Shown: in pieces, positions 40,801 through 63,562 of the stretch
Layout of the letters: the number at the start of each line of letters is the position of its first letter
How positions within the stretch are numbered: the stretch's first letter is position 1
NCBI GenBank assembly: GCA_016839745.1
Contig: JAEOTS010000004.1
Coordinates: 1-64,000, forward strand
Direction of reading: 5' to 3'
Origin: Promethearchaeota archaeon
GTDB lineage: Archaea > Asgardarchaeota > Lokiarchaeia > Sigyniarchaeales > SOKP01
DNA: 64,000 nt
Notes under the pieces: generated by a model
What the model saw: the letters and a program-made list of their open reading frames with translations, nothing else
Told to the model about the DNA's origin: nothing
Database searches by the model: none
Translations under genes and position numbers: made by a program

Positions 40801-43800
40801 TAATCAGGATCCCAAGAATATCCGACTGCGTCAAAATTCACCTTGTAATTAGCATGCCATCCTGAAGGTGAAACATAAAAATTATCAAAGTGCGCTTGAG
40901 GACTATATCCTCCTATGCTTCCAGAACTAATTCCGTTTATGATAATTTCAAATTGATGTTGACCTAAACCCATATATCCACCAGTAGAACATTCAAAATG
41001 AATGAGTATATGTTGCCATACATTATCTAATGGAATAGGGACATTAGGGACATCAAAGGATCCACCAGAATAATATTTCCATTTATCATCTTGAGCATTA
41101 AGTAACAATCCTACAGCAGAACCATGTCTTAGAAAAATATAATTTGCATGATTCCAATTTACATTGCTTGACCGAAACCATAATTCTACAGAACCATACT
41201 CTTGATCGTCAAAATTGTTCCAAGTATTCGCTAAATGACCACTTCCTGCTGTTGTAGTAGCAATCTCTACAATTTGGTTATGATTTCCTAAGCTCCCTAA
41301 AACCGAGACTGTGCTTCCAGTACCTTCGTAAACTTCCCAATTATCTGGATCTCCTCCGATAGCATCGTCCTCGAAACTGTATGTGCCTTGATAAGCTCCA
41401 TCCGTTTGATATTTATAATCGTAATTTTCCTCTTCCTTATTGTCACCGATTGCGTAACTGGGGTCCCACGAATATCCAAACGCGTCGTAATGCGCGTAAT
41501 AAGGTCCATCGTATCCGGAGGAGAGCATCCTCAAACGATCACAGCTACCTAAACTGTTCTGATAATTATATGGACCATACTTAGTACCGTCTATGTATAC
41601 ATAAAAGGTATCCGCAGAGAGCCCTTCATAACCTCCTGATCCGCATTCAAAATCGATTCGGACGTGATAAAACTGATTTGCTGTTGCTGAACGTATATTG
41701 TGCCAGCTACCATCATTGTATCTAAAATAATTTAAACCCATTGCCACTACAAGTCCAACAGAGCTCCCAGAATAGAGCAAAACCTGAGAATAATAATACG
41801 GAGTGTTAACGGTCATCCAATACTCGACCGTACCACTGGTTTGAGCGGAATCAAAATAGTTATAAACCGAGACGTAATCTCCACCAGTATCATAACTTTG
41901 ATCTTTTAGTTCTAATACCTTCTTATGTCCCCACTTTTGAGATATGATCTTTGCGTGACAATCAGTACCTTGATGGCATTCGTTGATAAAATCTATATCT
42001 GTTCCTGTTTCCCCATCGTCTTCAGTTGCAAACGAGTACGTACCTTTATACTCGCCTTCTTTTTGTGTGGTTCCGCCAGGCACTCCAATTCCAATCTTGT
42101 AGTCACCCCAATAATCCAAACCTAAACTCTCGTCATTCATAATAGGAGTGACATCTACAACTTGACTAAAGTATCTGGTATTATTCGTTGAGAAATTTGC
42201 AAGTAACACACCATCGTCTTTTTTAGTAATTACTACGTACAGATCTTGCACGTCTTCGTCTGGAACTCCGTAGCTGTCGGTCGCGTTTTGACCATATTCG
42301 CCAAAAGAGATACCAAAACTAATTTGAGCGGCAACAGCTTGCTCGAAATGGTGAGGGAAATGAAGCGAAATGGGAGCAGAGAGGTTAACTTTTTTGTCGA
42401 GGTCGTCAAACCCATCGTCCTGCAATTTTACAAGGTAGTTCTTAATCTCGGCAGAATCGCTTATATGATCGTGGTCTGTATCTGCTTCGAGGGGGTTGGT
42501 AAAGAACCCAATTCCCCACCCATATACCTCTTCTCCATCCTTTAGACCATCTTGATCTGAATCTGTATTATTATAATCAGTTCCTCTAGCTATTTCTTCG
42601 AAATCCGATAGCAAATCATTATCACCATCCCAATTTGCTGGGAAGGGGTCAATATCGTCAGTTAGATCGTCGTTGTCGGTGTCGGCTTGTCGGGGATGAG
42701 ACCCCGCATAGTATTCTTCGTAATCGCTTAGCCCATCATCGTCTGTATCCGATTCTAACGAATCAGATGTAATGTGAAAGTTAGTGGTATTTTCGAAATA
42801 CACCACAGTTATGTTCCATCCAATGTATTCGGTTCCATCTGAGAGGAAATCATCGTCCGTATCCCAATCTAACGGGTCGGTGGAAACTGCTAGTTCTCCT
42901 ACGCTTCCGTTCACCGTTTGCCCGTCCCATAACAAATCACCATCGGTATCTGGGTCTAAGTACGAGGTATTACTCACAGTCATCTCGTAAGTATCAGTTA
43001 ACCCATCACCGTCCGTATCTGTGGGATCGTCGGAGGTTCTAAGCATTTCCTCTGTGTTGTCATCCACTCCATCCAGAGAGGAGTCAATTGTAGAAACGAT
43101 CTGAAAGGTGCAAACTTTTTCATTTCCTTCTGGGTCGCACACTCTCACCTCCCCTTGATAGGTAGTAGTTTCTCTACAGGTAAAGGTGACAGTTGAGTGA
43201 AGTTGATACCTATCGTCCCCAAGTCTAACAACCTTCTTACCGTTACGAATCGTCCAGAAAAAGTATAACTTTTCGGAATCTAATAGCGTATCCATACCAT
43301 AAACTTTTAACTCCAGTTCGCCATCGTTTTCGAACGAATAATCCCCTACAACACCGTGATACATATAGTTCGACATATAAATCTCGGGGGATAAGGAATG
43401 CATGGTCACCACAATTTCTTTTGAACTTCTCATACCCGATGGATCGACAACCTCCAGCGTGTAAGTATAGGTGCCGTCGTCTAAGTTAAAGACCGGTTTT
43501 TGCTCTTGCGACACTAATGTTCCCTTATCGTCGTACCAGAAGTATTCTAATTTTAACTCGTCTTTGTTTGAATCGTAAATTTCCACGTCGAGAACGATGG
43601 AGCTTCCTTCAGAACCTTGAAACGCGAACGGACCAACTATTTCAGGTGCCTTTGAAAGGATGGTTATGTTTTTTTGGTCTCGATGGATGTTTCCATACGG
43701 ATCGGCAATAGCTAAGGTAATGTTATACACTCCCGCATCAAGCCAAGCGTGTTTAGCGTGTTCTGAATAAGCAACGGTTCCATCGCCAAAGTCCCACATG

Positions 43801-46106
43801 AAGACCATCCCTGGAACGTCTTGATCGTTAGTTTTTGAGGTGAACTTCACCCTTTCTCCCTCGTAGGCAGTGCTTGAAAATCCGCCTATCTTTCCAAAAG
43901 GTACCGGAATTGCATTAGATGATATAAGAGGGGTAAGAGGAACATAATCTTGAGTCAACTTAATATCGACCAAAGACTCGAAACCGAAAGTAAGGGTATC
44001 TTCTCCCAAATCGTCGTCTACTGCGTTAGCAATTAGGGTGTTCTCTGCTAAAAGGCAATTTTCTACAGATAGATCGGAGAGTCCTAATCTTCCTTGTAAT
44101 ATGTTATTTATATTAATCAACGGAGCAATGTCGATCTGCACCTCCTCTATAAATGGAAATGTGTGGTTTTCAAACAATTCCGAATAAACATCCTTTCGGG
44201 CGGTAATGTTAGCAAATTGCTTTGAGTCTTGTTCGTACACATCCACAATGTATTCAGTGTCTTGCGTTGTAAAAGCGTCTAAAATTGGTAAGGCATCTAG
44301 ACAGGTTATTTCGAGCAACTTGTTCTCTTGATAGGAAACAGAGTAGTGCACTTCATCTTTTGAAGGATCAAACACCTGAGTAGCAAAAGTCATTGGATAC
44401 TTATAGGAGAAGTTCTGTTCGTCAAAAAATTCCGAACTTAGATCAACCTCCCAAGAACCGTAACTACCTCCCATCATTTGGTCGCTATTCAAAATTAGTT
44501 CCTGTCCATTAATAAAAGTCAGTTTAACTGACGCTTGAAACACTGAATCGGCGGGTAATATTTCGGATGAGTTAATTGCTACTTTCCACTGGTTGTCAAG
44601 ACTGAATGAAGCAGTTAGAGGGTTAGTACTTAGATAGGTTTCACTTGAATTTAAAAACGAAAGAAACTTGGTAGCACTAGTCTTATTATCTTTGAATAAA
44701 ACAAAAGTAAAATTCCCTTCTTTCGTTGTGTCGCTCCGATAGACTTCGAAGCTTACGTTTGAAATGATACTGGCACTAAGTACACCTATTTGAGGTGCTA
44801 CATTCAATGCTTGGACATTAATTGAATCAGAATTGAACTCGTTAGAGGAGTCAATCACACCAACGGTGACATTTCCCTCAAAATCGTCTTCGAAAACATG
44901 TTTATTTTTCCAACCACCTAACTGGTAATTATCTAAACTTAAAGGATCAAATTCGACCGAGTCAAAATTCCAGTAATAAAACAGCTTAAAAATGTCAGGA
45001 TCGTCGTCTCGAGAGCTTGTAGAAAATAAAATCTCTTCTCCCTCGTTAATAATTAAAGAAGAGTTGTATAAATCTCCTACAATAGCAATGTCAGGCTTAA
45101 TATTTTCGATAACTATAATACGAGACATCTGGTCAACGAAGGAGTCGTCGTCTTTAACGATAAGAGTAATATTGTAACTACCCGATTCGTAAAAGGTGTG
45201 CGACACGCTTTTTCCGTAATCCATAAGACCATCTCCATAATCCCAAATATAACGCAGATTATTAATATCTGATAGCGAATCGAAGCTATCCTCTGCTGTA
45301 AGTTCGATTTCTTTCCCAACGGCAACATCGTCTTCATTCATAATCCTAAAAGAAGCCTTGGGACGTCTATTGAGAACGTCAATATACTGGGTTTGCGTGG
45401 ATAACTCTCCTTGGGCCCCTACGACAGTAATAGTCACCGGGTAGGAACCTTTGTTTTTCCAAGCGTGTGTAATAGAGTTATTTTCTATTACAACTTGGCT
45501 ATCTCCGAAGTTAAACTGGTAGGTTAAAGTGTCGTTAGTTGGGTTATTCGTCACATTTATGGTTATGTCTACCTCCTCGTCCTCAAAGGTTTGGAACGGG
45601 GAGGCGCTTGTGCGTAGAACTCCTTTAGGATTCGGTATCTCTCCGTTAAACCCGAAAGAAAAGAGGGGCGCCTCGTTCCGAATATACACATCGAGAACCT
45701 TTTTAAACGTCTCTCCGGGATAATACGCCTTTAATATTGGAGTATATTTACCCTGAAGCGCGTATATGTGGTCAATACTCCCATAAGTCATTCCATTATC
45801 GTTGAAACATTCGCTACTGAGCTCTTCAAAGCTCCCGTCGCCAAAAACTAGTATAAGTTTTTGAGGAGGCCCCATAAGCGACCATGTAAACGGAACTGGT
45901 TTTCCTGTTCTGAAAGCAGAAGCGTCGCTGGACAAACTAAAGTCCTTGAGTTCGTTCGGGTGGAACTGAACTACAGGACTATTAACAAAGAACGCTAAAA
46001 TCGTAATAAAAGTAATCAAAGAACCAAAAGTATATTGTATTCTTCTCTTTTTTGCTTTGGATACCGCCCTGTTATAGGGGGTATCCTTTTTAATGATATA
46101 TTTCAT
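34860..46106 (-). CDS. Giant multidomain cell-surface protein (PKD-like, acidic calcium-type repeats, five LamG-like modules, membrane clusters)
   Basis: 3748 residues in one frame. In order: an N-terminal membrane anchor (about 27-46); several PKD-like beta domains to about 900 (YIWDYGDG, FMWDFGDGTVAY); acidic thrombospondin-3-like calcium repeats at about 1008-1221 (DTDGDGLTD, DTDDDGLSD). Five copies of a ~200-residue LamG/concanavalin-like module follow, starting near 1348, 1568, 1840, 2051 and 2608, each ending in a YSWDxxYxIGDN-like tag. One more acidic repeat lies at about 2388-2430. A hydrophobic cluster sits at 2970-3063, beta domains at ~3100-3500, and about seven membrane helices at the C-terminus. 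It probably binds polysaccharide or neighbouring cells. The MarR-like gene follows on the same strand. Confidence 0.9.
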   Translation of the reverse strand: MKYIIKKDTPYNRAVSKAKKRRIQYTFGSLITFITILAFFVNSPVVQFHPNELKDFSLSSDASAFRTGKPVPFTWSLMGPPQKLILVFGDGSFEELSSECFNDNGMTYGSIDHIYALQGKYTPILKAYYPGETFKKVLDVYIRNEAPLFSFGFNGEIPNPKGVLRTSASPFQTFEDEEVDITINVTNNPTNDTLTYQFNFGDSQVVIENNSITHAWKNKGSYPVTITVVGAQGELSTQTQYIDVLNRRPKASFRIMNEDDVAVGKEIELTAEDSFDSLSDINNLRYIWDYGDGLMDYGKSVSHTFYESGSYNITLIVKDDDSFVDQMSRIIVIENIKPDIAIVGDLYNSSLIINEGEEILFSTSSRDDDPDIFKLFYYWNFDSVEFDPLSLDNYQLGGWKNKHVFEDDFEGNVTVGVIDSSNEFNSDSINVQALNVAPQIGVLSASIISNVSFEVYRSDTTKEGNFTFVLFKDNKTSATKFLSFLNSSETYLSTNPLTASFSLDNQWKVAINSSEILPADSVFQASVKLTFINGQELILNSDQMMGGSYGSWEVDLSSEFFDEQNFSYKYPMTFATQVFDPSKDEVHYSVSYQENKLLEITCLDALPILDAFTTQDTEYIVDVYEQDSKQFANITARKDVYSELFENHTFPFIEEVQIDIAPLININNILQGRLGLSDLSVENCLLAENTLIANAVDDDLGEDTLTFGFESLVDIKLTQDYVPLTPLISSNAIPVPFGKIGGFSSTAYEGERVKFTSKTNDQDVPGMVFMWDFGDGTVAYSEHAKHAWLDAGVYNITLAIADPYGNIHRDQKNITILSKAPEIVGPFAFQGSEGSSIVLDVEIYDSNKDELKLEYFWYDDKGTLVSQEQKPVFNLDDGTYTYTLEVVDPSGMRSSKEIVVTMHSLSPEIYMSNYMYHGVVGDYSFENDGELELKVYGMDTLLDSEKLYFFWTIRNGKKVVRLGDDRYQLHSTVTFTCRETTTYQGEVRVCDPEGNEKVCTFQIVSTIDSSLDGVDDNTEEMLRTSDDPTDTDGDGLTDTYEMTVSNTSYLDPDTDGDLLWDGQTVNGSVGELAVSTDPLDWDTDDDFLSDGTEYIGWNITVVYFENTTNFHITSDSLESDTDDDGLSDYEEYYAGSHPRQADTDNDDLTDDIDPFPANWDGDNDLLSDFEEIARGTDYNNTDSDQDGLKDGEEVYGWGIGFFTNPLEADTDHDHISDSAEIKNYLVKLQDDGFDDLDKKVNLSAPISLHFPHHFEQAVAAQISFGISFGEYGQNATDSYGVPDEDVQDLYVVITKKDDGVLLANFSTNNTRYFSQVVDVTPIMNDESLGLDYWGDYKIGIGVPGGTTQKEGEYKGTYSFATEDDGETGTDIDFINECHQGTDCHAKIISQKWGHKKVLELKDQSYDTGGDYVSVYNYFDSAQTSGTVEYWMTVNTPYYYSQVLLYSGSSVGLVVAMGLNYFRYNDGSWHNIRSATANQFYHVRIDFECGSGGYEGLSADTFYVYIDGTKYGPYNYQNSLGSCDRLRMLSSGYDGPYYAHYDAFGYSWDPSYAIGDNKEEENYDYKYQTDGAYQGTYSFEDDAIGGDPDNWEVYEGTGSTVSVLGSLGNHNQIVEIATTTAGSGHLANTWNNFDDQEYGSVELWFRSSNVNWNHANYIFLRHGSAVGLLLNAQDDKWKYYSGGSFDVPNVPIPLDNVWQHILIHFECSTGGYMGLGQHQFEIIINGISSGSIGGYSPQAHFDNFYVSPSGWHANYKVNFDAVGYSWDPDYDIGDNLVDPLEAGCYLDYFELEFCRYLDPNDPDSDDDGILDGVEMGVLVEGTDLIDFEDYYLSNNLTQNAIGNFSATYSFEEEADGTTNANISFIDYVSVDSSCVATIVKEFEYHNKVLELSDENSGGKVYAYNTAFERQNGTIEFWWAQTADDQDSLVRLYDDGTGTALTLYMRDTGKFAWYDGTYHDVGKYDENTWYHHKIAFNCSDGAKGTFTWFIDGTLEAEDIDFDDNCQSLDKLMFGTDSGSSGYDTYLDAIGFTWNWTYWEGENYENQLPSDPKIGHYPGTYSFEDDTVGGLPAGWVSYEGDYCDVEVLASLDGHDKVVELYDHYADTTCYASMYNEFTPVDDGTIEVWLRYDGVAESRFMQIFEDDSMTVGMHALHSSGGNFYDGNGNLLQVCNNNQWYHVKFEFDCSADTFSIWIDGVLKTDTGEMPANFDDDVGVLRFVTYGWGTYNAYWMYVDGIGFSWDSDYEIGDNNNSQEMELTAPDEYYLEIPHIGKVTDGQLDLEVKSDSSTEGSGRVFVQLIKEEMNLTKSDIVLLAYCKEFDSSEQFTYQKSIDLSPYVTSGQVYGTYHLRVQAFSTASTDVFNLTKFEIETDTYVVADFNDTIAWVTDPAEEDTDGDGWSDNYEIFTKGTSPVSVDSDGDESWDPNDRDPLRDVMLEIHPYKGIFRNLAILDLHALLQISVAFTFGENEYYIVTPVAQGTEYANGFGYYQTAYFGDHYYINIDDDTVRQSNTITMHLQMWHVRRHRGLSDVEIIDGNDDYSIGTPSETYTTVYANQTGYFGHLNELEVKVKTVAIEKANTLAIFNANTTFNGHYNDPNQRYTLIQLTIPDEGHYLGSESFLNEEIGNNCTNIDFVSFDCSDVESYVKIIEEIDGHSNVLRVQGGLDDHADFDHNFTSSQAYGTIEWWWRTSKISGGVSYFYLENDDTEVIRLFMRDGKIKYHDGSYHDVMSASSDTWYRMKLFFECKVGEAGLYRFDLYVDGVLKVIDAPFYNDEDSINKLKIATTGDPFYSYFDAFGYSWDANYDIGDNGLTYSVEGTPFEHGMNVIVVPTELFTHTKLNGYVENDTLDLTPLYHPDEHVFEFTAIARDGNPDTANSDVDFLFTRLGISPEDAMDVLELILWGCVNDTLDESNNTIYEKIHDYVSTKINGTMASEMGLPYSVLGYIPWFNTYTSSAMGDEPEPEGGITDMLLWLMCLINPILYIMLHAQMAMTRGTFYQYLVNFAANIFMAILTALGDLLWLIARAALYVLFWIMLAIEFLFITITVLTIGVSFLAFSFLGDIESSFGISFPLEYGKNHLAGYIELSSPNNKIRTEYWIEWMYWEFFDLYVPWVVDKSISGDTVVYEQSQDILSGETLESTGQNTVPTLPATEDTPPTLHCGFIDKGAGSYEFWTNYYDPNHKAPDISYGVKLHLIDSSGNALNSYDMVESEDPDYSILAGVNFTKTVDLSSYDEGLWHYYFSTKDKDTAEIVTQPINDYFVGPDTSEGPTYLMGHRVTSDDTNDYSNLNGWITDDFRFYVTWWNTVDGNAPVEINLCLVPSQISIGTGVSKTVGIQKFEMSEVESSPDYDDPVEYYVDINFDNLNYDDDTIGAFKYYFEAESSTGEIISTLSSDDEDPDHLTHFEGPYVKSVSQDTLNFGVNSYCTYGEGSIISRDVEVVYIVEVSDYSNYGLSSKPVIIFSQGETTEEFDMLHYRSSTDGKTKNYYFKVDCKTLSTGTWQVDFEFEYDEDPYSIDSGILLVSDYIKEFTIEDSAFYDYADIFRNIGFFVTGTLTLGLFVATIISSMASKAHADTIAIVGSIISLVSVILSIALTIGGLVATGNKGGLIGFAMSLLINFILVGLMELTSFSKFYKVGIKLDKLLSVFRRNIEVFVVLQAVILVSGNFLHAIGQTTGYILLNGISDILLLFPVFLSTIVSSAVVSFALSAQRHLHPGSSAQKVIIRTMRIYWMTLFAGAVAGFILADFI

Positions 46107-50761: not shown

Positions 50762-52915
50762 ATGCCACAAAAAAAAGAAAAACCAGAGGAGGAATTCGTC
50801 TTTGAATTTTACGACGAAGACTATGCTGAATCCTTAGATGATGTAGAAGCACCAGAAATAACCGAGGAATATAACGAAGTCGATTTTAAAGCAGACTTAA
50901 ACGAAGAACAACTCGAAATCGTGAATAACATTCAAGGTCCGATGCTGGTTATTGCAGGAGCCGGTTCTGGAAAAACGAGGACTATCGTTTATTCCGTTGC
51001 GAAACTTCTAGTATCAAAAGCAAAACCTAGCGAAATAATGCTTGTTACCTTCACGAACAAAGCCGCTAGCGAAATGATCAAACGAGTAGAAACTTTACTT
51101 GGAAAAAAACCAAAGGGTATATGGGGGGGCACTTTTCACTCAATTGCTAACCGATTTTTGAGGATGTACGCAAAAACGCTTGGACTTAAACCTAATTTTA
51201 CAATTATGGACGAAACTGACGCAAAAGGATTAATGAAGTTATCGATCGATAAAACAGGGGTGAAAGATCTCGAAGAAAGATTTCCTACAGCAGCAATGGT
51301 AAAATCTATTTTATCGTTTTCAATCAACTGCAATAAGAAAATTCGCGAAGTGATCCAATGGAAATACGATCAATTTGATAGCGATGTTGTTGTTGCGAAA
51401 TTACACGAGGTCATCAATATTTATAGGGCCAAAAAAGCAGATGATAGCTTATTGGATTTCGACGATTTATTGGTGTTCTGGAATAGGTTGCTCGATGAAA
51501 GATCTATTGCGAAATTAATTGCTAAGAAGATTAAATATGTGTTAGTTGACGAATATCAAGATACAAACTACATCCAAGACGAGATTATTTATAAAATCGT
51601 ACAACAAAATCCAGAACGTAATGTAATGGCAGTTGGTGACGACGCGCAAAGCATATATGCGTTTCGAGGCGCGAATTTTCAGAATATCTTGAATTTTGAG
51701 AAAAAATATAAAAATTGTAAGAGGTACGCTATTACTTATAATTACCGAAGCGCTCCCCAAATATTAGAACTAGCAAATAACTCGATTGAGCATAACGAAA
51801 ACCAATTTAAAAAATCCATGAGAGCTACGCGCCCAAGTGGAATCAAACCGTTTCAAGTAAATTTAGGAGACGATAAAGACCAAGCTAGGTTTATCGCAAA
51901 TCAAATTCTAAAGTTGCGTCAAGACGGGTATAATTTAGACGAAATGGCTATTCTCGTACGAGCTGGTTTCCATTCGTTAAATATTGAACTTGAGTTAAAA
52001 GCTAAGAACATTCCTTATGAAGTTCGAGCGGGAGTAGCGTTTTTTGAAAAAGCTCACATAAAAGACATGCTTGCCCATCTACGAGTAATTGAAAATCCTT
52101 ATGACGAAATATCGTGGTCGAGGATTTTTACTTTGGTTCCCGGAATAGGTACTGCTTCAGCGTCTAAAGTCTTTGAAGCAATCTCTAAAACTGAAGAACC
52201 AATTAAAAATTTGCTTAGTAAAACATTCGTTTCTGAATCTCTCAAAGGCTCAAGAATTTCGAAGAATGGAATTCAGAACCTAAATTCGCACGTAAAAAAC
52301 TTAAAGGATTTTACAGTTGGAGATATTCCTAGTGAAGTAATCAAGAATTTAATTGGAGCGCTTGAAGATCATACTAAGACTAAATACGAAAATTGGCAGG
52401 ATAGATTAGCTGATTTAGACCAACTCAGCGTATACGCTCAAAATTATCCAACAACTCAAAAATTCTTAGAAAATTTGAGTTTAAACTTATCCGCTTTAGA
52501 ATCTAAAACAGTTCTTGCTGGAGATCAAACTGATGAAGAAAAACCACTTGTACTATCTACAATCCATCGAGCTAAAGGATTAGAGTGGCGCGTGGTTTTT
52601 ATTCCGATGTTGTGCGAAGACTCGTTTCCTTCCAGTAGAGTGGTAGGGGATCCTGATGCTTACGAAGAGGAAAGAAGAGTGTTTTACGTTGCAACAACCA
52701 GAACTAAGGATCAATTGTATCTTATTTCGCCGGCGATTAGAAATACATATAAAGGTCCTCAGACAGTTCGCATATCTCAATTTGTTGACGAATTAAACCC
52801 TAAAGTCTATAAAAGATCAACAGTCCGCTATAAAACTACATTATCGAAAAATAAGGCATCAAAAGAAAATAAAGCATCATTTTTTACAACGGCAGATAAA
52901 CTTGGAAAGAAATAA
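50762..52915 (+). CDS. UvrD/PcrA/Rep-type superfamily 1A DNA helicase
   Basis: 717 residues with all SF1A motifs: Q-motif region LNEEQLEIV, Walker A AGAGSGKTRT, Ia TFTNKAA, II VDEYQDTN, III GDDAQSIYAFRGA, IV NYRS, V STIHRAKGLEW, VI VATTRTKDQL. A 45-residue acidic leader precedes the core. It unwinds 3'-tailed duplex DNA in repair or replication restart. Such helicases are bacterial in type and patchy in archaea, so acquisition by transfer is possible. It converges with the repair operon, 13 bp from the TPR gene. Confidence 0.93.
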   Translation: MPQKKEKPEEEFVFEFYDEDYAESLDDVEAPEITEEYNEVDFKADLNEEQLEIVNNIQGPMLVIAGAGSGKTRTIVYSVAKLLVSKAKPSEIMLVTFTNKAASEMIKRVETLLGKKPKGIWGGTFHSIANRFLRMYAKTLGLKPNFTIMDETDAKGLMKLSIDKTGVKDLEERFPTAAMVKSILSFSINCNKKIREVIQWKYDQFDSDVVVAKLHEVINIYRAKKADDSLLDFDDLLVFWNRLLDERSIAKLIAKKIKYVLVDEYQDTNYIQDEIIYKIVQQNPERNVMAVGDDAQSIYAFRGANFQNILNFEKKYKNCKRYAITYNYRSAPQILELANNSIEHNENQFKKSMRATRPSGIKPFQVNLGDDKDQARFIANQILKLRQDGYNLDEMAILVRAGFHSLNIELELKAKNIPYEVRAGVAFFEKAHIKDMLAHLRVIENPYDEISWSRIFTLVPGIGTASASKVFEAISKTEEPIKNLLSKTFVSESLKGSRISKNGIQNLNSHVKNLKDFTVGDIPSEVIKNLIGALEDHTKTKYENWQDRLADLDQLSVYAQNYPTTQKFLENLSLNLSALESKTVLAGDQTDEEKPLVLSTIHRAKGLEWRVVFIPMLCEDSFPSSRVVGDPDAYEEERRVFYVATTRTKDQLYLISPAIRNTYKGPQTVRISQFVDELNPKVYKRSTVRYKTTLSKNKASKENKASFFTTADKLGKK

Positions 52916-54428: not shown

Positions 54429-56510
54429 CTATATTGATTTTCTCTCGACTTTTGTAATGTGATTGCTCTTTTTGAATGTGTATATATCAGTTACAAACGA
54501 GTCTAAGGTCCTTTCATGAGAAATGATAATCGTCTGGGAAGTATTTAGCGAATTAAAAATCTCTTGCATACGATTCACTTGTTGCTGGCTAAAACCGTCT
54601 GTAGGTTCGTCTAAAATCAGTAAATCTTTAGTTTTGACATCTTGATATCTCTCGTTAATGATTTTAGTTAATCCTAACCTGTATGCTAACGATATTGCAC
54701 TTTTTTCTCCTCCTGAAAGATCTTTAAAGGGAGAATCGTAACCGTTCACGTTAATTATCGGCTGAAAATCGTCAGGGCGAATCTCAACTTCTATATTTCC
54801 GCTCTCAACTAAGATGTTAAACCATTCTTTAAAAAATGTATTAAAATCTCGAGCGCTCGAAATTAAAATCTGCCTTTCAATATCTCTTAGTAAAACAGGA
54901 AATTGTTCTTTTACCCAATTTCTAATCTCAGTAGAGTATTCCAGCTTCTCTTTTAGCTTTTTCTTTTCTTCTAATCCAGCTTTTAATTCGTTAACTTCCT
55001 TTTTCAAATACTCTTGAGTTTTTCTTTCAGCGCTTAACTCTATTTCAATGGCATTTTTTTGGGATTTCAATACTTCTATTTTCTCTTCAAAAGAGTCCAA
55101 ATTTTCTTTTATGTCCGACTCTAGTTTTTTTAATTCTGTTATATCAGCGATTTTAAAAGCTTTTAACGTTCCCTCGATTTCTTTTTGTACTATGTTTATT
55201 TTATTTATCATCTCATCTAGTTTCTTCTGATTATCTGCTTCTTGTATTTTGCTCGCTTCTACGAGTTTTTCGTATAACTCTATTTTACTCTTATTTGAGG
55301 TAAATTCTTGTAAATCCTTCAGATTAACTTCTAATTTATCAATATTTTTAGACAATTTTTCTATTTCACTCGAAAAAGAATCAACTTCCCCTAACGCGTC
55401 TTTTAGTTCTCCTTTAAATCGTTTTTCTTCATGGATTTCTTGTCCACACAACGAACATTTCCCTTTTTCCAACAATTCGTCGATGTCTTCAATTTTTTGT
55501 TCGATAACCGCTTTCTTTTTTTCTTTTTCAGAAATTAGTTTTCTACCTTCGGAGATTTGTTCGCATATCTGGGCTTCAGTTAAATCTGTTGACAGCTCAA
55601 TTAATCCAACTTTTTTAGCTTCTTCTTCGTTTGTCTTAATGTTATTCTGGGCAGTTTTAAGATCTTTAGCATATTTTTCTCTTAATTCAGTATATTCTTT
55701 AAAGTTCTTTTCTTTACCATCCAGTTCTATTATTTTTTTTGATACATCTTCTTTTTTTGATTTTATAACGTCACGATCCTTTTGAATAAGATTAACTTCG
55801 GTTTGTTTTAATTCGCTCTCCTTTTCCATGCTACTAATTTTGCTCTCTTGGGCTCGTAGGTCGTTTTCTTTTTGTGGAATCGTATCTTCGATCCCTTCGA
55901 ATTGATCAATTAAAATTTTAGCCTTGCTAATATCGTCTCTTAAAAAATCGATAATAATCTTGATATTTCTTAAAGCAACTTCGTATTTCTCAATACCAAA
56001 TACGTCCTTTAAAATTTCAAAACGCTTCTCTGGATCAGCTTCTAAAATCTCTTTTACTGATTCTTGGGGGGTATATACCGTATATCGAAATAGATCAATT
56101 CTTTGTGCTCGTTCGTACCTTGTAACTGAATAGTTGAGCGTTTCTAAAACTTTTCTACGTAAATCAGTTGCCGCGTATGATGTTTCGCTCTCGTTTATTG
56201 TTAAAGAACCTTTCGTTTGCGAGACCGCTCCAGTTTTATTTTTTGATAGACCCCTCTTTATTACATATCTATCGTTATCAAGTAAAAATGCTAACTCCAC
56301 AGAAGCACTGTTTTCACCTCGCCGTAAAATAGAATCTCCACTTAAATCCCCACTCTTTAGCGTTCCAAACAAAGCGAATTCGATTGCCTTTAGAACTGAA
56401 CTTTTTCCACTACCGATATCTCCATAAAAAAGCATTGTTGTCTGGGGAAAGGTAAGATCCATATTTTTGATACTTCTAATATTCCCTATTTTAATTGATT
56501 CCAAAATCAT
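54429..56510 (-). CDS. rad50: Rad50 DNA double-strand-break repair ATPase
   Basis: 693 residues. Walker A GDIGSGKSS (30-38), long coiled coils on either side of a zinc hook (CSLCG near 352), ABC signature LSGGEKSAISLAYRLG, Walker B LLILDEPTDG. It is shorter than the ~880 of many archaeal Rad50, mainly in the coiled coil. It tethers and clamps DNA ends with Mre11, using ATP. Its start overlaps the mre11 stop by 4 bp. Confidence 0.95.
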   Translation of the reverse strand: MILESIKIGNIRSIKNMDLTFPQTTMLFYGDIGSGKSSVLKAIEFALFGTLKSGDLSGDSILRRGENSASVELAFLLDNDRYVIKRGLSKNKTGAVSQTKGSLTINESETSYAATDLRRKVLETLNYSVTRYERAQRIDLFRYTVYTPQESVKEILEADPEKRFEILKDVFGIEKYEVALRNIKIIIDFLRDDISKAKILIDQFEGIEDTIPQKENDLRAQESKISSMEKESELKQTEVNLIQKDRDVIKSKKEDVSKKIIELDGKEKNFKEYTELREKYAKDLKTAQNNIKTNEEEAKKVGLIELSTDLTEAQICEQISEGRKLISEKEKKKAVIEQKIEDIDELLEKGKCSLCGQEIHEEKRFKGELKDALGEVDSFSSEIEKLSKNIDKLEVNLKDLQEFTSNKSKIELYEKLVEASKIQEADNQKKLDEMINKINIVQKEIEGTLKAFKIADITELKKLESDIKENLDSFEEKIEVLKSQKNAIEIELSAERKTQEYLKKEVNELKAGLEEKKKLKEKLEYSTEIRNWVKEQFPVLLRDIERQILISSARDFNTFFKEWFNILVESGNIEVEIRPDDFQPIINVNGYDSPFKDLSGGEKSAISLAYRLGLTKIINERYQDVKTKDLLILDEPTDGFSQQQVNRMQEIFNSLNTSQTIIISHERTLDSFVTDIYTFKKSNHITKVERKSI

Positions 56511-57817
56511 AGGCTCTCCCCCTTCTTAGTTAGATCAAAAATCTCAAGAAATTGGTTCAGCAGTTCTTCGTTATATTCTCTGACTTGTGTTCCTTCTTCT
56601 CTATCAGTACCTAATACTTCCAAGATTCTATGAATTTTATTTTCCATATCTTTTTTAGATATTTTTTTAATATTAGTCGTTTCAGCATGTTCGTGAATGA
56701 GCGTCTCTTCGATCTCCTCGTTTGTTTTTCCAACAGCAACGCTTATTGGGGCGTACTCTTTTGATGTAAGAGCGTTCTTATTTATTAACGCGTCCAGCGC
56801 TCCCTTATTTCTTAACTGTTCTGCAATTTCGTTTGACTTAATTTCGTACGCTCTACCAGAGGTAAGCGAACCTATAATTCTGACTGTTACGATTTTATCT
56901 TCAGCATTTAACGCTGAAATTTTTTGGTCAATAAGTTCTAGAGAATCTATAACAGTTTTATTAGTACAATCAATTACTAGCGTAAGGATTTCTCTTGGTT
57001 TAATTGGAACAAATTTAACCTTAAGCTCCGAACTTTGAGATTCGCTGTTAACCTCTCCAGAAACGATACAAAAGCCACCATATTGATATTTTTCAAGCTC
57101 TCGAAAATCTGTTGGATAAAGCGAGCCAGGGTAAATAATGCTATTTTTTTGATCGACAATAAGGGTGTTATCTCCTGTTCGTAATTTTTCAGGAACAGTC
57201 TTATGAAGATGACCACCAGCATAATAAGCAAAGTTTTGAGGTAATAACGATTTAGGAGCAGATTCCATATCTTTGAATTCTACTGGTTTTAACTCGCTTA
57301 ACATCGTGTGTAATACAAAAATTTTAATTCCTTCTTCATTCTCTAAATCTTCTCGTAGTAATCGCTTGTAATCTTCAATTTCTAAACTTCTCTTTCGTGC
57401 TCGTAATCCAGTTAGTTTTATACCCGTTTTTGCGTCTTGGATAAAACTTAATTTTAATTTCTTATTATCCGTGAGTTCGCCTTTAGATACGTCAATAAAC
57501 AGTCCTGCCGAAATTAAGGGACGGATCATTGAATTATCAGATGGTGAAAAATCGTGTGAGCCCATTATTCCATAGACAGGTATGTTTTTATCGCGTAATT
57601 TTTTTAACTCTCTTACCGCTAAATCCACAACATCTACTTTTGGATTACTAATGTCGAAAAGATCTCCGCTGAGAATAACAAAATCTACTTCCTCCTCAAT
57701 AATTTTATTAATTGCCTGCTCAAAGGCTTCGTATCCCGTTTGATTTAATATCTCATTTCTCCAAGCACCCAGATGGCAATCAGATAAATGAGCGAATTTT
57801 ACAAACACCTTATTCAC
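56507..57817 (-). CDS. mre11: Mre11 nuclease
   Basis: 436 residues. Phosphodiesterase motifs: DCH (D13, H15, in HLSDCHLG), LSGDLFD, GSHDFS, and GGHLHK. The third motif has serine where GNHD is usual. The C-terminal ~150 residues carry the DNA-capping and Rad50-binding parts. It uses two manganese ions to trim DNA ends. Located between herA (28 bp) and rad50 (4-bp overlap). Confidence 0.94.
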   Translation of the reverse strand: MNKVFVKFAHLSDCHLGAWRNEILNQTGYEAFEQAINKIIEEEVDFVILSGDLFDISNPKVDVVDLAVRELKKLRDKNIPVYGIMGSHDFSPSDNSMIRPLISAGLFIDVSKGELTDNKKLKLSFIQDAKTGIKLTGLRARKRSLEIEDYKRLLREDLENEEGIKIFVLHTMLSELKPVEFKDMESAPKSLLPQNFAYYAGGHLHKTVPEKLRTGDNTLIVDQKNSIIYPGSLYPTDFRELEKYQYGGFCIVSGEVNSESQSSELKVKFVPIKPREILTLVIDCTNKTVIDSLELIDQKISALNAEDKIVTVRIIGSLTSGRAYEIKSNEIAEQLRNKGALDALINKNALTSKEYAPISVAVGKTNEEIEETLIHEHAETTNIKKISKKDMENKIHRILEVLGTDREEGTQVREYNEELLNQFLEIFDLTKKGESL

Positions 57818-57845
57818 ATCTTCTAATTTTTTAATTAATTAAGTT

Positions 57846-59435
57846 TCAAGAAAATCCTGGTGATTTTATTTTAGTTTTTGAATTTTGTTTTTGTCTACCT
57901 TCCTTAATAAAATCTTCAAATAAAGGAATGTTAATTGGAACTGCAAATTTAGTAAAGGTAGACGTAACAATAGCCTCTCCTTTATCAAGACTTCCGATCG
58001 TTTGATAATCGTCCGATAAGTCTTGAGCAGCACTATCAATTAAAGCTCTGCGTTCTGGACCCATTTCATTACCAAGAATAATTTTTGTATTCATATTTGC
58101 CAATATTTCACGGTCGATTATACTTGGAAGCTGTGTAATTGCAATAAGACCTATTTGAAATTTCCTTCCTTCTCGTGCGATTTTTCCAAAGACATTATCA
58201 ATTGATTCTAACACTTTTTTTCCTATAACTCGCGGAGCCTCTTCGATTACGATAGAGATAACAGGTCTTTCTTGTAATTTATCTTCAAACTTAAGCTTTT
58301 TATATTCCTTAAAAACGCCTTCTACGATAATTGAAGCGATAAATATTTCTTCTGCGCCTTCTAATAAGGACGTATCGATTATTATTGTTTTACCTTTTGA
58401 TAATGAATCTATTATAGCGTGTGTAGTTTGTTCGTAGCCACTCGATGTATAAATTCCTTTTTCGCTTAGAGTTCCATCGTCTTCAAGATAAAGGTTTAAT
58501 AATAGCCCAAGCTTCCTCCTTAGAACTTCGATAGTTTGAGGTTGAACTCCTATTTTTTTTAGTTCTTCTGGAGTATGATCTTCATATATTTTTTGAATCC
58601 ATTTTTTTCTATCAGATCGATAAAACACTACAATAGCTTGTTTTTGAGCGTCTGTAAGACTTATACTCCCGATAATATGAGCCGGATTAATAAGATTCAT
58701 GTTAAATTTCAAATCGTTAGCTCCTGAAGTGCCTCTAATAGTATAATATTCTAAGAATTCAGGGCTCTTTGGATGATCTCTCAAACCTTTTTGAGTAATA
58801 GATCCATAATATTCGTTGTGAGGGTCAAATACTAATTTCCCACACTTTTCGTTGTCCAGCAGACCGTAGAGTATTGTTTTTACTAAATTTGATTTACCTC
58901 TTCCCGTTGCAGCGGGTATTAATACATGATGTTTTAATACCTCAGCGGCGTTAACCATTACATCTATGTCTAAGACTTTAGAACCGGAACGCACTTTACC
59001 AAGGTTTAACGGTGTCTCGATCTCTTCTTCTTTAAAGAATTGAAGATGAGATTCCTCTAATTCGAAAATATCTGAAAAGAATGCGGGTAATTTTTTGGGA
59101 ATTGTAAGCTCGTACTTTTCTGAGACCGTGTTTTTTCTAATAGATATCAATTCTCTTGCGTGTGCAAGCACATAATTCCTTAGCTCGGGCTCGTAAATTT
59201 TGAGATTTGACCGATCTCTTTCCAATCCATAACCTGCCATTAACTCCAAAGAACTATCAGGAATTTGGCTTCCATAAAATAGATCTTTAATCTGGAAGAT
59301 CGAATATTCGTCCATACTATTTCCAGCGACAATCAATTCTCCAATCTCAAATTCTTTGTCTGATTTTTGCCTTAAAATTAATTTTACAAAAGATCCTGAC
59401 ACGAAACTTCCTATTTTATTTCCTAATTCTGTCAT
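57846..59435 (-). CDS. herA: HerA DNA translocase/helicase
   Basis: 529 residues: a small N-terminal beta-barrel (HAS-barrel), then the FtsK/VirB4-like ATPase with Walker [12 protein letters not shown] near 183, [11 protein letters not shown], a Walker-B-like strand IVIEEAPR and IAITQLPS. Hexameric HerA pumps DNA to the NurA nuclease during end resection. nurA lies 53 bp upstream, mre11 28 bp downstream. Confidence 0.94.
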
Positions 59436-59488
59436 TTTTTACTACATTCGTAATTTTATAATTTTAATTTAATTATTCTCTTTCTTTT

Positions 59489-60622
59489 CTAGTTTTTTCT
59501 TATTGCGTTTAATAAATCATGTGCATCGATAGAGCGAATGCGTGGTAAAATATAGTTTGCATACAATTCCGAATCGAATTCAGACATCAACTGAATTTTT
59601 TGAGGGCCAATTTCTCTAGCAGCTACTCTCGATAATTGATCTACTTTGATCAAGCCATAGGGATAACCTGGAAACGATAAATCGGTTGAATTTCTTGCTA
59701 AATTTGAGATTATAACTTCTTTTTCCTGTTGATCTAACTTTTCTGATTGGTCTAGATAAATATCAAACCTAAACGGCGAACGGGCAAATTTATGGAGTTT
59801 CACGAAATAGATGTCTGCTAAATTATCCGCCTTAGTTATTCTATAAATTGGATGATAATACCAAGTCTCTTCTGGATATTTTTTACTTGCCATCATATCA
59901 ACCAAAGATATTAAGGAATCTCCGCTTTTTGTAATCAACCTACATGTCTTCGAGAGTCCCGTAATATAAACGCTTTTCTCCTTGGCCGTCGAGTGTAGCT
60001 CTCTCACTAACAAGATTTCGTCTTTATATCCTGTTTGAAGCGATCCGTCTCGAATAAATATATCTCCCTTATCCAGTTCATACTCGATAAGTTTGGTGGC
60101 GTATGTCCATTCTGCAAACCTCATTGCAACTCCACCGAAAATCTCAATTCTCGGCATAAATCGAAATCCAATTAATTCCCTTACTTCATTCAAAGGTATA
60201 ATAATTTCCTCGTCTGGCAAGAATTCTTTAAATCTTGGCTCTCTCGGAAACAGTTGGATATTGTATGCCATTTTTCCATCTGTTAAAGGTTCTAGGATCG
60301 TTGCAGTATAAAATTCTATAACCTCGGGAGTTTTCTTGGATGATTTAATTTTATTTCCTTCAAATAACACTCCTGCAACTCTATTTAAACTGATATTAAA
60401 ATCCGCTGCGCTCAAGATTGATGCAGTTCCCCCATCCACGAAGGCTAATTTTCTCGACTCATCACAGACCGGAATTGGAAAAATTCTCTCTTTAGCAATA
60501 TCATAACTTATTTCATTCTCTCCTTCGGTAAAGGGTGAATCTTTAATATTAATTTCTCGTTTGCGCTGTTGAATAAAATCGATACACTCTTTTAACACAG
60601 AGGGGTTGTTATTGTCGTTCAT
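59489..60622 (-). CDS. nurA: NurA 5'-3' nuclease
   Basis: 377 residues with the NurA domain: FVDGGTASIL near residue 50 provides the first metal aspartate, and IFIRDGSLQTGY another acidic site. It degrades the 5' strand of DNA ends together with HerA. It is the first gene of the nurA-herA-mre11-rad50-TPR operon; AT-rich promoter sequence lies at about 60640-60690. Confidence 0.92.
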   Translation of the reverse strand: MNDNNNPSVLKECIDFIQQRKREINIKDSPFTEGENEISYDIAKERIFPIPVCDESRKLAFVDGGTASILSAADFNISLNRVAGVLFEGNKIKSSKKTPEVIEFYTATILEPLTDGKMAYNIQLFPREPRFKEFLPDEEIIIPLNEVRELIGFRFMPRIEIFGGVAMRFAEWTYATKLIEYELDKGDIFIRDGSLQTGYKDEILLVRELHSTAKEKSVYITGLSKTCRLITKSGDSLISLVDMMASKKYPEETWYYHPIYRITKADNLADIYFVKLHKFARSPFRFDIYLDQSEKLDQQEKEVIISNLARNSTDLSFPGYPYGLIKVDQLSRVAAREIGPQKIQLMSEFDSELYANYILPRIRSIDAHDLLNAIRKN

Positions 60623-60755: not shown

Positions 60756-62726
60756 TTATAAAGTATAGATATTTTGAATAATTTCTTCAATAATAGTAAT
60801 TTTCTTACCGTCTAAATAGCATTTTTCTATAAAATCTTCCATAACTTTATAATTCTTTTTACAATCTTTTACTTTCGTGAATTCATAAATTTCTTTTAGT
60901 TTATTAAGTTCCTTATTGTAATAATCTTCCTCGACACTAGATTTTATTATAGTTGACATATTTGGATTTAATGAAGCCCAATTTCTTTCAACTTTTTGTT
61001 CATATGGATCCTTGATATCTTTATCACCCATGATTTTCCTTAAAACGGTATTAGTCTTCTTATGATTCTCAAGGTCATCACCTTTCTTATTACTATCAGT
61101 ATCAAAAATTACATATGTTGGAATCTCAAATTCTCTAAAAATTAATGCTAAACGGTCTAAATTTCTTTTACCTAAACTAGGTATAACTGTAATTCCGCAT
61201 TCATCAAAATTCTTTTCACTTAATTTTTGATCAAGAGCTAAAAAAATAGCTTTATCTTCTAGCCCTTCTACAAATACTACTTTATCTGCGAAAAAACCCT
61301 CTGATATTTCAAGTGTCATAATAGATATCAATCGACTTATTAATGTTGTCGCATCACATTTTTTTTCCTCAGGGAATTCCCACATCTCTTTAATTTTTTG
61401 GGCAATATCATGAAGTTCAATTTCTTTTGCAGAAACAAAATAGTGATCATTTTTTTTTATTTTCCTTAAAATCCGTATGTTTTCGACACTCTGTATATCT
61501 ATTAAATAAGGAGAATGACTACTGCATATTATTTGAAATTTAAATCCTGAATCTTTATTATAAGTTATTATCTCATTAAATAATTTCTTGATTAATTTAA
61601 TTCTATTAGGGTGTTGGTACAATTCAGGTTCTTCAATAATTAGTAAGATTAAGTTTTCATTCTGATCAGAATTATCTTCATCTCGATCTATCCCCTTGCT
61701 TTCTTTCTCTATAAACCGCTGTTCCCCTAAATATTGCAAAAGAGTGAAGAAAAAAGTTCTCTGTACTCCATGACCTAAAGACGATATAGGTCCTTTGAAT
61801 TCATACTCCTTTAATTCTGTCCCATAGCTTGTTCCTTTAAACAAAACATCTCCGGGAAAAAAATTAATATATACTTCACAATCTGGTGCATATTGATTTA
61901 ATCTATCACTTAACTCTTTATTTAGAAAAGAAATTCTAGAAATATTATCTTTATCTGTAAATTCTTGATATTTCTTTAATGTGATCTCTTTAAATTCATT
62001 TAACTCCCTTGATTCCTCAATTGTATTTTTAATAGTCAAGTTCACTAATTCATTTAAATAAGTTGATCGTTCTTCTTTTTCTTCTTCACTATATTCATGA
62101 ACTGCAGGAATAAAAAAGAATTCCATATATTTTCCTAATTTCCCTGTTCCTACTCCTCTCCAACCGAAAAACTGACCTTTATCCATGGTAAGTTCTAGAT
62201 CAGCAGGATGATCATTTTCCCATTCAGTTAAAAATACTTCAATAACATCCGCTGATTGTCTCCCAATTTCTGGTAAAGAAGTGTATTTTTCCATTGTTTT
62301 GAGTTCTTTATATAATTTTTTTTTCTCAGTTTTACTTTCAGTTTCCCTAATTTCATTAAATTGACGATATAATTTTCTTTGACCATGATATTTTTGAGAT
62401 TTGTTAGGATTGTTATTTTCTTCATCACCTTTAGCTATTTTTATTACTCGTAATATGTTATTTTGGATATAAGGATGAAATTCTTGCTCTTCGTCTTTTG
62501 TTAAACCCGTAAATGCTATGCTTACTTCTATCTGATTTTTCAAATCTTTATTGTAAAAATCCTCTACTTTTAATCTATATTTAGGTTCTTTGAAAAAATT
62601 TAAAGCATGTAAAATTGAAGATTTTCCAACACCATTTTTTCCAATTAAAATGGTAAAATTACTTAATTTTAATGTTAAATCTTTGATCCCTCTAAAATTT
62701 TTAATATTAACTTCTTTAATTTTCAT
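60756..62726 (-). CDS. OLD-family ATP-dependent nuclease (ABC ATPase plus TOPRIM)
   Basis: 656 residues from ATG 62726. The N-terminal ABC ATPase has Walker A IGKNGVGKSS (28-37), a signature-like LGHGVQRTFFF and Walker B LLIIEEPELYQHP. The C-terminal TOPRIM has VVFVEGLEDKAIF and FDTDSNKK, the glutamate and DxD metal site. OLD proteins cleave DNA and serve in phage defence, alone or with a partner (as in Gabija). A TTG 12 bp upstream could also start it. The closest gene, divergent across 160 bp, is a WYL domain. No helicase is adjacent. Confidence 0.88.
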   Translation of the reverse strand: MKIKEVNIKNFRGIKDLTLKLSNFTILIGKNGVGKSSILHALNFFKEPKYRLKVEDFYNKDLKNQIEVSIAFTGLTKDEEQEFHPYIQNNILRVIKIAKGDEENNNPNKSQKYHGQRKLYRQFNEIRETESKTEKKKLYKELKTMEKYTSLPEIGRQSADVIEVFLTEWENDHPADLELTMDKGQFFGWRGVGTGKLGKYMEFFFIPAVHEYSEEEKEERSTYLNELVNLTIKNTIEESRELNEFKEITLKKYQEFTDKDNISRISFLNKELSDRLNQYAPDCEVYINFFPGDVLFKGTSYGTELKEYEFKGPISSLGHGVQRTFFFTLLQYLGEQRFIEKESKGIDRDEDNSDQNENLILLIIEEPELYQHPNRIKLIKKLFNEIITYNKDSGFKFQIICSSHSPYLIDIQSVENIRILRKIKKNDHYFVSAKEIELHDIAQKIKEMWEFPEEKKCDATTLISRLISIMTLEISEGFFADKVVFVEGLEDKAIFLALDQKLSEKNFDECGITVIPSLGKRNLDRLALIFREFEIPTYVIFDTDSNKKGDDLENHKKTNTVLRKIMGDKDIKDPYEQKVERNWASLNPNMSTIIKSSVEEDYYNKELNKLKEIYEFTKVKDCKKNYKVMEDFIEKCYLDGKKITIIEEIIQNIYTL

Positions 62727-62886
62727 AACTAAAACCAATTTTTAGAATTGAATTGAAACATAAGGAATTTTGTCGGTAATATTTATTAATTAATAGATAT
62801 TACTCATTTCTGTAATATAAATTATACATAGTAATTAATAAATGTTATAAAATGTATAAATAAATAAAAAGAATTAAGCGGTTCAT

Positions 62887-63195
62887 TTGAAAAGGATAAT
62901 ATGTGAAGCTATCAAAGGTAAGAAGGTTCTTACATTTTATTATGATGGAGGAAATCGTAGAACTGAGCCATATTGCTACGGTCGTGGGAAAAAAGGTAAT
63001 GATTTTCTAAGAGCATACCAAATTAGTGGATATAGTAGATCAGGTAACCCACAAGGATGGAAACTCTTTATTATGTCTAAATTATCAAGTATAATAATAA
63101 CGGATGAGACTTTTAATAAAATTAGACCGAAATATAATCCCAAAGATCCTCAAATGTCTACGATATATTGTAAAATAGAAAAAACTTCTGTTTAG
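62887..63195 (+). CDS. Stand-alone WYL-like domain protein
   Basis: 102 residues starting at TTG 62887. The sequence follows a WYL (PAFF) domain: ICEAIKGKKVLTFYYDGG, RRTEPYCYGRGKKG and FLRAYQISGYS. No winged helix is attached. WYL domains sense nucleotides or nucleic-acid fragments and regulate many defence systems. Being divergent from the OLD gene, it may control it through the shared 62727-62886 region. Confidence 0.75.
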   Translation: MKRIICEAIKGKKVLTFYYDGGNRRTEPYCYGRGKKGNDFLRAYQISGYSRSGNPQGWKLFIMSKLSSIIITDETFNKIRPKYNPKDPQMSTIYCKIEKTSV

Positions 63196-63227
63196 ATTCC
63201 AGTTCTTTTTATCCCCAATAAGATATT

Positions 63228-63241
63228 GGTGTTTAAACACC
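63228..63241. repeat. Perfect 14-bp palindrome
   Basis: GGTGTTTAAACACC equals its own reverse complement. It lies between the WYL gene and a coding-like stretch that seems to lack its start. It may be an operator or a junction. Confidence 0.45.
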
Positions 63242-63244
63242 AAG

Positions 63245-63562
63245 CACTTCAGTTACGAGGAACTTTACTTCCTAAAGGAAAAGAGTAACCTCGCCATCTA
63301 CCAAGCTTTGTTACCAAAAGTTTTTAGGATGCCAGGAGTCAGAGAAAAATACGACAGAGAGCCTGGAGCGTTTGAAGAGATGTTGTCGGGAAACATTGGT
63401 GCTCGTTCCTTTGCTCCGTTTGTTAGAATTACATCCGATTTCCTCTCCGTTGACGTTATATTTTCCGGCATACTTAATATAAAACCGAAGAATATAGCAC
63501 CGAACCTTAAAGGATTTGACTACATTAACATGGAAGTGCGAGAAACATATTTTAACTATTAA
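63245..63562 (+). pseudogene. Coding-like stretch without a proper start, possibly 5'-truncated gene
   Basis: From about 63245 to TAA 63562 one frame reads as good protein of about 105 residues (KHFSYEELYFLKEKSNLAIYQ, then LPKVFRMPGVREKYDREPG). Codon use is more G/C-rich than the genes before it. The open frame continues upstream to 63179 but that part looks non-coding. Possible starts are TTG 63308 and ATG 63329, both inside the convincing region. I suspect the 5' end was lost near the palindrome at 63228. Family not recognised. Confidence 0.45.

What the first reader, a model, noticed from the sequence alone, without database searches (positions are those of the whole stretch)
60756..63195. 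OLD nuclease divergent from a lone WYL domain: candidate defence pair
OLD ATPase-TOPRIM proteins and WYL regulators are both recurrent in antiphage systems. Here they share one promoter region, with no helicase partner adjacent. A WYL-controlled single-gene OLD system in an Asgard archaeon would be new to me.
Basis: partly seen in the sequence, partly recalled or inferred. Interest (0 to 1): 0.6.

Follow-up and report, generated by a model that had tools for sequence, protein, structure and literature searches.

The report
OLD nuclease with small WYL partner
An Asgard archaeon carries a mobile two-gene cassette, an OLD-type antiviral nuclease and a tiny WYL protein of the fold known to bind single-stranded DNA, and the same small WYL protein turns up again and again beside OLD and similar antiviral ATPases in unrelated archaea and bacteria, which suggests a sensor for these enzymes that has not been described.

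Summary
OLD is 60756-62726 (-, 656 aa, ATG at 62726), with intact ATPase and Toprim motifs. The divergent 102-aa protein (62887-63195, +) fails Pfam's WYL model, but its AlphaFold model (pLDDT 90.7) best matches the WYL domains of ssDNA-bound DriD and of PafBC. It has no HTH. The refutation test ("no repeated linkage") failed. A second lokiarchaeal genus has the same divergent pair (OLD 60%, WYL 54% identity), and DNA similarity stops at the two outer stop codons, so this is a cassette. A third has tandem copies. OLD-WYL pairs also occur in Deinococcus and Rhodococcus plasmids, a pseudomonadote, a haloarchaeon and two genomes of one halobacteriotal order. Six of 15 OLD genes in 31 WYL-bearing genomes lie beside the WYL gene, against 0.02 expected. 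Other copies of the lone WYL adjoin PDC-S46, PDC-S06 or Lamassu-like Rad50/Mre11 genes. The pair is not obligatory: 10 of 48 WYL loci have OLD, and most OLDs lack WYL. A promoter-binding WYL regulator is unlikely (no HTH, orientation varies). I favour a stand-alone nucleic-acid (probably ssDNA) sensor subunit acting on OLD and related ABC-ATPase effectors. That mechanism is inferred. New variant of a known kind.

The parts
60756..62726 (-). OLD-family nuclease: N-terminal ABC ATPase + C-terminal Toprim, 656 aa; Walker A GKNGVGKS, EEP Walker B, H-loop, Toprim E487 / D542 / D544 conserved
   Evidence: AlphaFold model nearest T. scotoductus OLD 6p74
62887..63195 (+). stand-alone WYL-domain protein, 102 aa, N-terminal helix then Sm/SH3-like barrel, no HTH; TTG start
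   Evidence: AlphaFold pLDDT 90.7, Foldseek best hits DriD-ssDNA 7tzv/8tp8 and PafBC 6sj9; family alignment
62727..62886 (.). AT-rich divergent intergenic region
62814..62846 (+). 33-bp block 41-73 nt upstream of the WYL start, 26/33 identical to the same place in the G119 cassette; possible promoter or operator
   Evidence: 6 of 1000 randomised pairs score as high; weak
60769..63177 (.). extent of nucleotide similarity (68%) to the OLD-WYL cassette of another lokiarchaeal genus; ends near the OLD stop and the WYL stop
63226..63243 (.). 18-nt perfect palindrome just after the WYL stop, terminator-like
   Evidence: number found equals chance expectation

Best explanation
The two genes form a small horizontally moving (probably antiviral) cassette. 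OLD is the effector: an ABC-ATPase with a Toprim nuclease that cuts DNA. The 102-aa WYL protein is a free-standing sensor subunit, not a transcription factor: its Sm-like barrel binds a nucleic-acid ligand, most likely short ssDNA released or exposed when foreign DNA is replicated, resected or cut, and by binding or leaving OLD (or delivering ssDNA to it) it sets OLD's nuclease activity. The same sensor is re-used by other ABC-ATPase effectors (PDC-S46, PDC-S06, Lamassu-like Rad50/Mre11). Shown: the genes, their motifs, the predicted fold, the repeated linkage, the cassette boundaries. Inferred: ssDNA as ligand, physical contact with OLD, control of activity, antiviral role.
For: Linkage: the same divergent pair in G119; tandem OLD-WYL in two contigs of G095; in the host family all three OLDs at least 50% identical to this one have the WYL gene beside them, none of the more distant ones do. 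Pairs also in Deinococcus pDrdII (4-nt overlap), Rhodococcus pdjl-6-4 (divergent), G464 and G1257 (WYL 32 and 9 nt upstream of OLD), G1128 (via DUF2130), Haloplanus. 6 of 15 OLDs adjacent against 0.023 expected; P about 2e-13, 1e-5 if defence genes cluster 20-fold. Follow-up in one order: all four WYL genes (G464 seen before, three new) adjoin OLD (2) or PDC-S46 (2). Fold: DriD/PafBC WYL; WYL domains of PafBC bind ssDNA through conserved Arg/Tyr (PMC11804915). Here Y19, R24, G32, G48 are invariant and Q45 nearly so. Without HTH and with orientation variable, a direct protein-level role fits better. Precedent: RspWYL1 contacts Cas13d and boosts it (PMC6547453).
Against: No ligand, interaction or phage assay. 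Only 10 of 48 WYL loci have OLD and 28 have no recognised ATPase partner. Most OLDs lack WYL, including an 82%-identical Rhodococcus sibling and seven more plasmid homologues. The WYL copies vary much. I did not align individual ssDNA-binding residues with PafB or DriD. Single-barrel WYL proteins could bind RNA or nucleotides instead.
Confidence: 0.45

Rival explanations
1. The WYL protein controls transcription of OLD (and itself) from the shared promoter region, alone or with a separate HTH protein, like BrxR or CapW.
For: Divergent arrangement in the window and G119 with a conserved 33-bp intergenic block; WYL factors regulate defence operons (PMC9122601, PMC9122588).
Against: No HTH or other DNA-binding domain in the protein or in the aligned homologues; in G095, Deinococcus, G464 and G1257 the genes are tandem/operonic; the block is short and the region AT-rich.
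Confidence: 0.2
2. The two genes are independent passengers of defence islands that sit together because such genes accumulate.
For: Both are sporadic; the WYL gene also lies beside many other defence-type genes (R-M, McrBC, DUF2130, AbiEii fusion); most OLDs lack WYL.
Against: Adjacency exceeds chance even with 20-fold clustering; exact two-gene cassette; overlap or 9-32 nt spacing in several genomes; WYL-linked OLDs cluster in the OLD tree (4 of 500 shuffles as low).
Confidence: 0.25
3. OLD belongs with the adjacent HerA-NurA-Mre11-Rad50 repair operon as a housekeeping end-processing enzyme; WYL is a DNA-damage sensor for the set.
For: OLD is directly upstream of NurA on the same strand, 133 bp away; haloarchaeal WYL genes are divergent from a second Mre11-Rad50-like pair.
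Against: Congeners keep NurA-HerA but have other genes upstream of NurA; the close OLD relative in G119 lies elsewhere, in an R-M-like neighbourhood; in the genera searched only the host of the window carries this OLD within its genus.
Confidence: 0.08

Closest known systems
Class 1 OLD nucleases (T. scotoductus OLD, P2 Old)
   Same: ABC ATPase + Toprim in one chain; T. scotoductus OLD is the nearest solved structure by sequence and fold
   Different: Class 1 is described as a single gene without partners (PMC10568477); here a WYL gene is paired with it
Gabija (GajA-GajB, class 2 OLD)
   Same: GajA-type ATPase-Toprim effector
   Different: no UvrD-like GajB next to it
Retron-Eco8 (class 3 OLD) and PARIS
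   Same: OLD/ABC-ATPase effector that waits for a trigger
   Different: no reverse transcriptase gene or known ncRNA beside it; Toprim is in the same chain, unlike AriA/AriB
ssDNA-sensing WYL regulators DriD and PafBC; RspWYL1
   Same: WYL barrel fold (for DriD and PafBC)
   Different: these carry an HTH (or RHH) and a further C-terminal domain; the present protein is the bare barrel
WYL associations predicted by Makarova et al. 2014 (PMC4012209)
   Same: WYL as ligand-binding regulator in defence loci, including fusions to AbiGII-like nucleotidyltransferases
   Different: the passages read name no pairing of a lone WYL protein with OLD or PDC-type ATPases

Membership tests
OLD family | N-terminal ABC ATPase plus C-terminal Toprim with catalytic E...DxD | tested here: met
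Class 1 OLD | stands as a single gene without partner | tested here: not met
   recurrent WYL partner; no helicase, RT or AriB next to it
Gabija | UvrD/PcrA/Rep-like GajB immediately adjacent | tested here: not met
   neighbours are NurA and WYL; UvrD about 8 kb away
Retron (class 3 OLD) | reverse transcriptase and ncRNA next to OLD | tested here: not met
   adjacent genes are NurA and WYL; no Rfam match in the window
PARIS | AriA ATPase with separate AriB Toprim nuclease | tested here: not met
   Toprim fused in one chain; the AriA profile hit covers residues 4-412 only, the AAA_15 part
WYL domain superfamily | WYL Sm-like SH3 barrel | tested here: met
   (predicted fold); 15 of 24 relatives match Pfam WYL weakly (best 1e-4), the window protein does not
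WYL transcription factors (DriD, PafBC, BrxR, CapW) | DNA-binding HTH fused to WYL | tested here: not met
   protein is 102 aa, one helix and then the barrel from residue 13
ssDNA-binding WYL | binds ssDNA via conserved Arg/Tyr | not testable with these tools
   fold match only
Antiphage defence system | protects against phage | not testable with these tools
   genomic context only

The most novel reading that the evidence does not exclude
A single-domain WYL protein is a general plug-in sensor of defence ABC-ATPases across archaea and bacteria: one small ssDNA-binding subunit licenses OLD, PDC-S46, PDC-S06 and Lamassu-like Rad50/Mre11 effectors, and some phages carry lone WYL domains that could act as decoys.
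Probability: 0.25. Interest if true: 0.8.

Novelty: new variant of a known kind. Interest (0 to 1): 0.55.

Why it matters
How class 1 OLD nucleases are triggered, and whether they defend alone, is an open question stated in a 2023 review of the family (PMC10568477). A recurrent small partner with the fold of known ssDNA sensors offers a directly testable answer, and would tie OLD, PDC-S46, PDC-S06 and Lamassu-like effectors to one input. It would also add a two-gene system in Asgard archaea.

Tried and rejected
Pfam and NCBIfam on the small protein: nothing. Sequence profile against PDB: nothing; the fold search was needed. Single-protein scans of the viral and genome collections with the window protein found no relatives and alignments A1 and A2 were too diverse; A4 worked. 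Gabija, retron and PARIS filings rejected (see membership). Reverse test, OLD to WYL, in plasmids: 8 further OLD loci, no WYL, so obligatory pairing is rejected. The empty site beside NurA could not be drawn cleanly: one congener contig begins 28 bp upstream of NurA and the others carry different genes there. Promoter and terminator scans gave no more than chance. Literature: no held paper joins OLD nucleases with WYL apart from a BREX survey in which WYL occurs only in the reference list.

Full report
WHAT IS THERE. The window carries an OLD gene on the minus strand and a 102-codon gene on the plus strand, start to start. OLD has AAA_15 and OLD-like Toprim domains, scores best against PADLOC Old, keeps Walker A, the EEP Walker B region, the H-loop and the Toprim residues E487, D542 and D544 (numbering from the ATG at 62726), and its closest solved relatives are T. 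scotoductus OLD and GajA; an AlphaFold model (mean pLDDT 74.7) finds the same first. The small protein is invisible to Pfam and marginal for the PADLOC WYL models (E 0.03), but relatives score better (15 of 24 relatives match Pfam WYL weakly). Its AlphaFold model (pLDDT 90.7, pTM 0.83) is one helix followed by a barrel, and Foldseek puts the WYL domains of DriD (several entries bound to ssDNA) and PafBC first, then Sm/Lsm/Hfq proteins. There is no HTH.

IS THE PAIR REAL. Among 228 genomes of the phylum, 7 carry this WYL family. G119, another genus of the same family, has WYL and OLD divergent as here, OLD 60% and WYL 54% identical, in a neighbourhood that looks like type I restriction-modification (by eye). 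DNA similarity between the two genomes covers 60769-63177 and nothing outside it in the stretch compared, so the unit is OLD + intergenic + WYL. G095 has two more copies, both tandem (OLD then WYL) and both damaged or mis-assembled. In 61 genomes of the family the three OLDs at least 50% identical to the window's all have WYL beside them; the distant ones (33% or less over long matches) that I could scan do not. G154 and G033 have the WYL gene without OLD.

BEYOND ASGARD. Plasmids: Deinococcus pDrdII has WYL overlapping OLD by 4 nt; Rhodococcus pdjl-6-4 has an OLD divergent from an unannotated WYL frame. Genomes: G464 WYL-OLD, G1128 WYL divergent from DUF2130-OLD, Haloplanus WYL with OLD about 580 bp away and Mre11/Rad50-like genes on the other side. 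In 31 WYL-bearing genomes there are 15 OLD-Toprim genes; 6 lie within about 2.5 kb of a WYL gene, expected 0.023 by random placement, P about 2e-13, or 1e-5 if defence genes cluster 20-fold; without the window 5 observed, P about 4e-11 and 9e-5. As a later test I searched the order of G464 (232 genomes): besides G464, three new WYL loci, one 9 nt upstream of an OLD (G1257) and two next to a PDC-S46 ATPase. An OLD tree puts the WYL-linked OLDs in two groups, one holding the window, G119, Rhodococcus and G1128, the other Deinococcus, G464 and Haloplanus with one OLD that has no WYL; deep branches are long and uncertain.

WHAT ELSE THE WYL GENE SITS BESIDE. PDC-S46 in Lewinella, G1292 and G1295, PDC-S06 and an SbcDC pair with LmuB-like score in Aliarcobacter, a second Mre11 + Rad50-like pair (best PADLOC match LmuB of Lamassu, 6.6e-36) in five haloarchaea that are close copies of each other, DUF2130, probable McrBC genes (by eye), a fusion with an AbiEii nucleotidyltransferase. 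Of 48 loci tallied by hand, 10 have OLD, 8 another defence-type ABC ATPase, 2 DUF2130 alone, 28 no recognised ATPase partner. Several of the 28 are GC-rich genomes where my ORF picking is crude, so that count is soft. The common denominator of the identified partners is an ABC/Rad50-type ATPase with a nuclease or effector part.

MECHANISM. A WYL barrel without a DNA-binding domain cannot by itself act like BrxR, CapW or DriD. The arrangement is divergent in some genomes, tandem in others, so co-presence rather than a shared promoter is the constant. WYL barrels of PafBC bind ssDNA through conserved Arg and Tyr (PMC11804915), ssDNA is the allosteric ligand of DriD (PMC12340889), and RspWYL1 binds ssRNA and contacts Cas13d (PMC6547453). 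I therefore favour a ligand-binding partner acting at protein level: ssDNA arising from foreign DNA would change WYL-OLD contact and thereby OLD's nuclease. Every step after 'fold and linkage' is inference; whether WYL activates or restrains OLD cannot be told.

CLASS. OLD family yes; class 1 as defined (single gene) not strictly, because of the partner; Gabija, retron and PARIS no. WYL superfamily yes; WYL transcription factor no. Best description: an OLD system with a WYL accessory, a new variant of a known kind. I found no description of it in the papers held, which does not cover most subscription journals.

LIMITS. No assay. The linkage is partial in both directions: 8 plasmid OLDs of the same broader group have no WYL, including one 82% identical to the Rhodococcus OLD. 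Many of the genomes are draft MAGs. The intergenic conserved block is short and only modestly above chance.

Noticed in passing
window 54429-60622: Complete NurA-HerA-Mre11-Rad50 operon directly downstream of OLD; the stretch upstream of NurA is variable between congeners.
   Followed up: partly
window 34860-46106: Single 3748-aa ORF with PKD domains in a GC-rich stretch (0.40-0.43 against about 0.32 elsewhere), likely a giant surface protein.
   Followed up: no
window 50762-52915: UvrD/Rep-type helicase about 8 kb from OLD, on the other side of the NurA-HerA-Mre11-Rad50 operon.
   Followed up: no
window 63308-63562: 84-aa frame with no Pfam, PADLOC or NCBIfam match between WYL and the next genes; possibly a gene remnant.
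   Followed up: no
L135-L155 (IMG/VR contigs): Viral contigs, several of them apparently tailed phages, encode WYL-like domains of this family, some as 200-270 aa proteins.
   Followed up: partly
L044, L045, L049, L050, L052: Haloarchaeal Mre11 + Rad50-like (LmuB-like) pair divergent from the same lone WYL gene, in different right-hand contexts: a probable defence cassette of its own.
   Followed up: partly
L181, L182, L059: PDC-S46 ATPase next to lone WYL in two archaea of one halobacteriotal order and in Lewinella.
   Followed up: yes
L048, L102, L013: DUF2130 protein adjacent to lone WYL, in L102 together with OLD; in a Citrobacter plasmid DUF2130 follows OLD without WYL.
   Followed up: partly
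L039:331-1716: AbiEii nucleotidyltransferase fused to a C-terminal WYL-like domain in a lokiarchaeon.
   Followed up: no
L157:3480-8887: Paracoccus versutus plasmid OLD followed by SbcD-like and SbcC/AAA-like genes (by eye), an OLD + Mre11/Rad50-like set without WYL.
   Followed up: no
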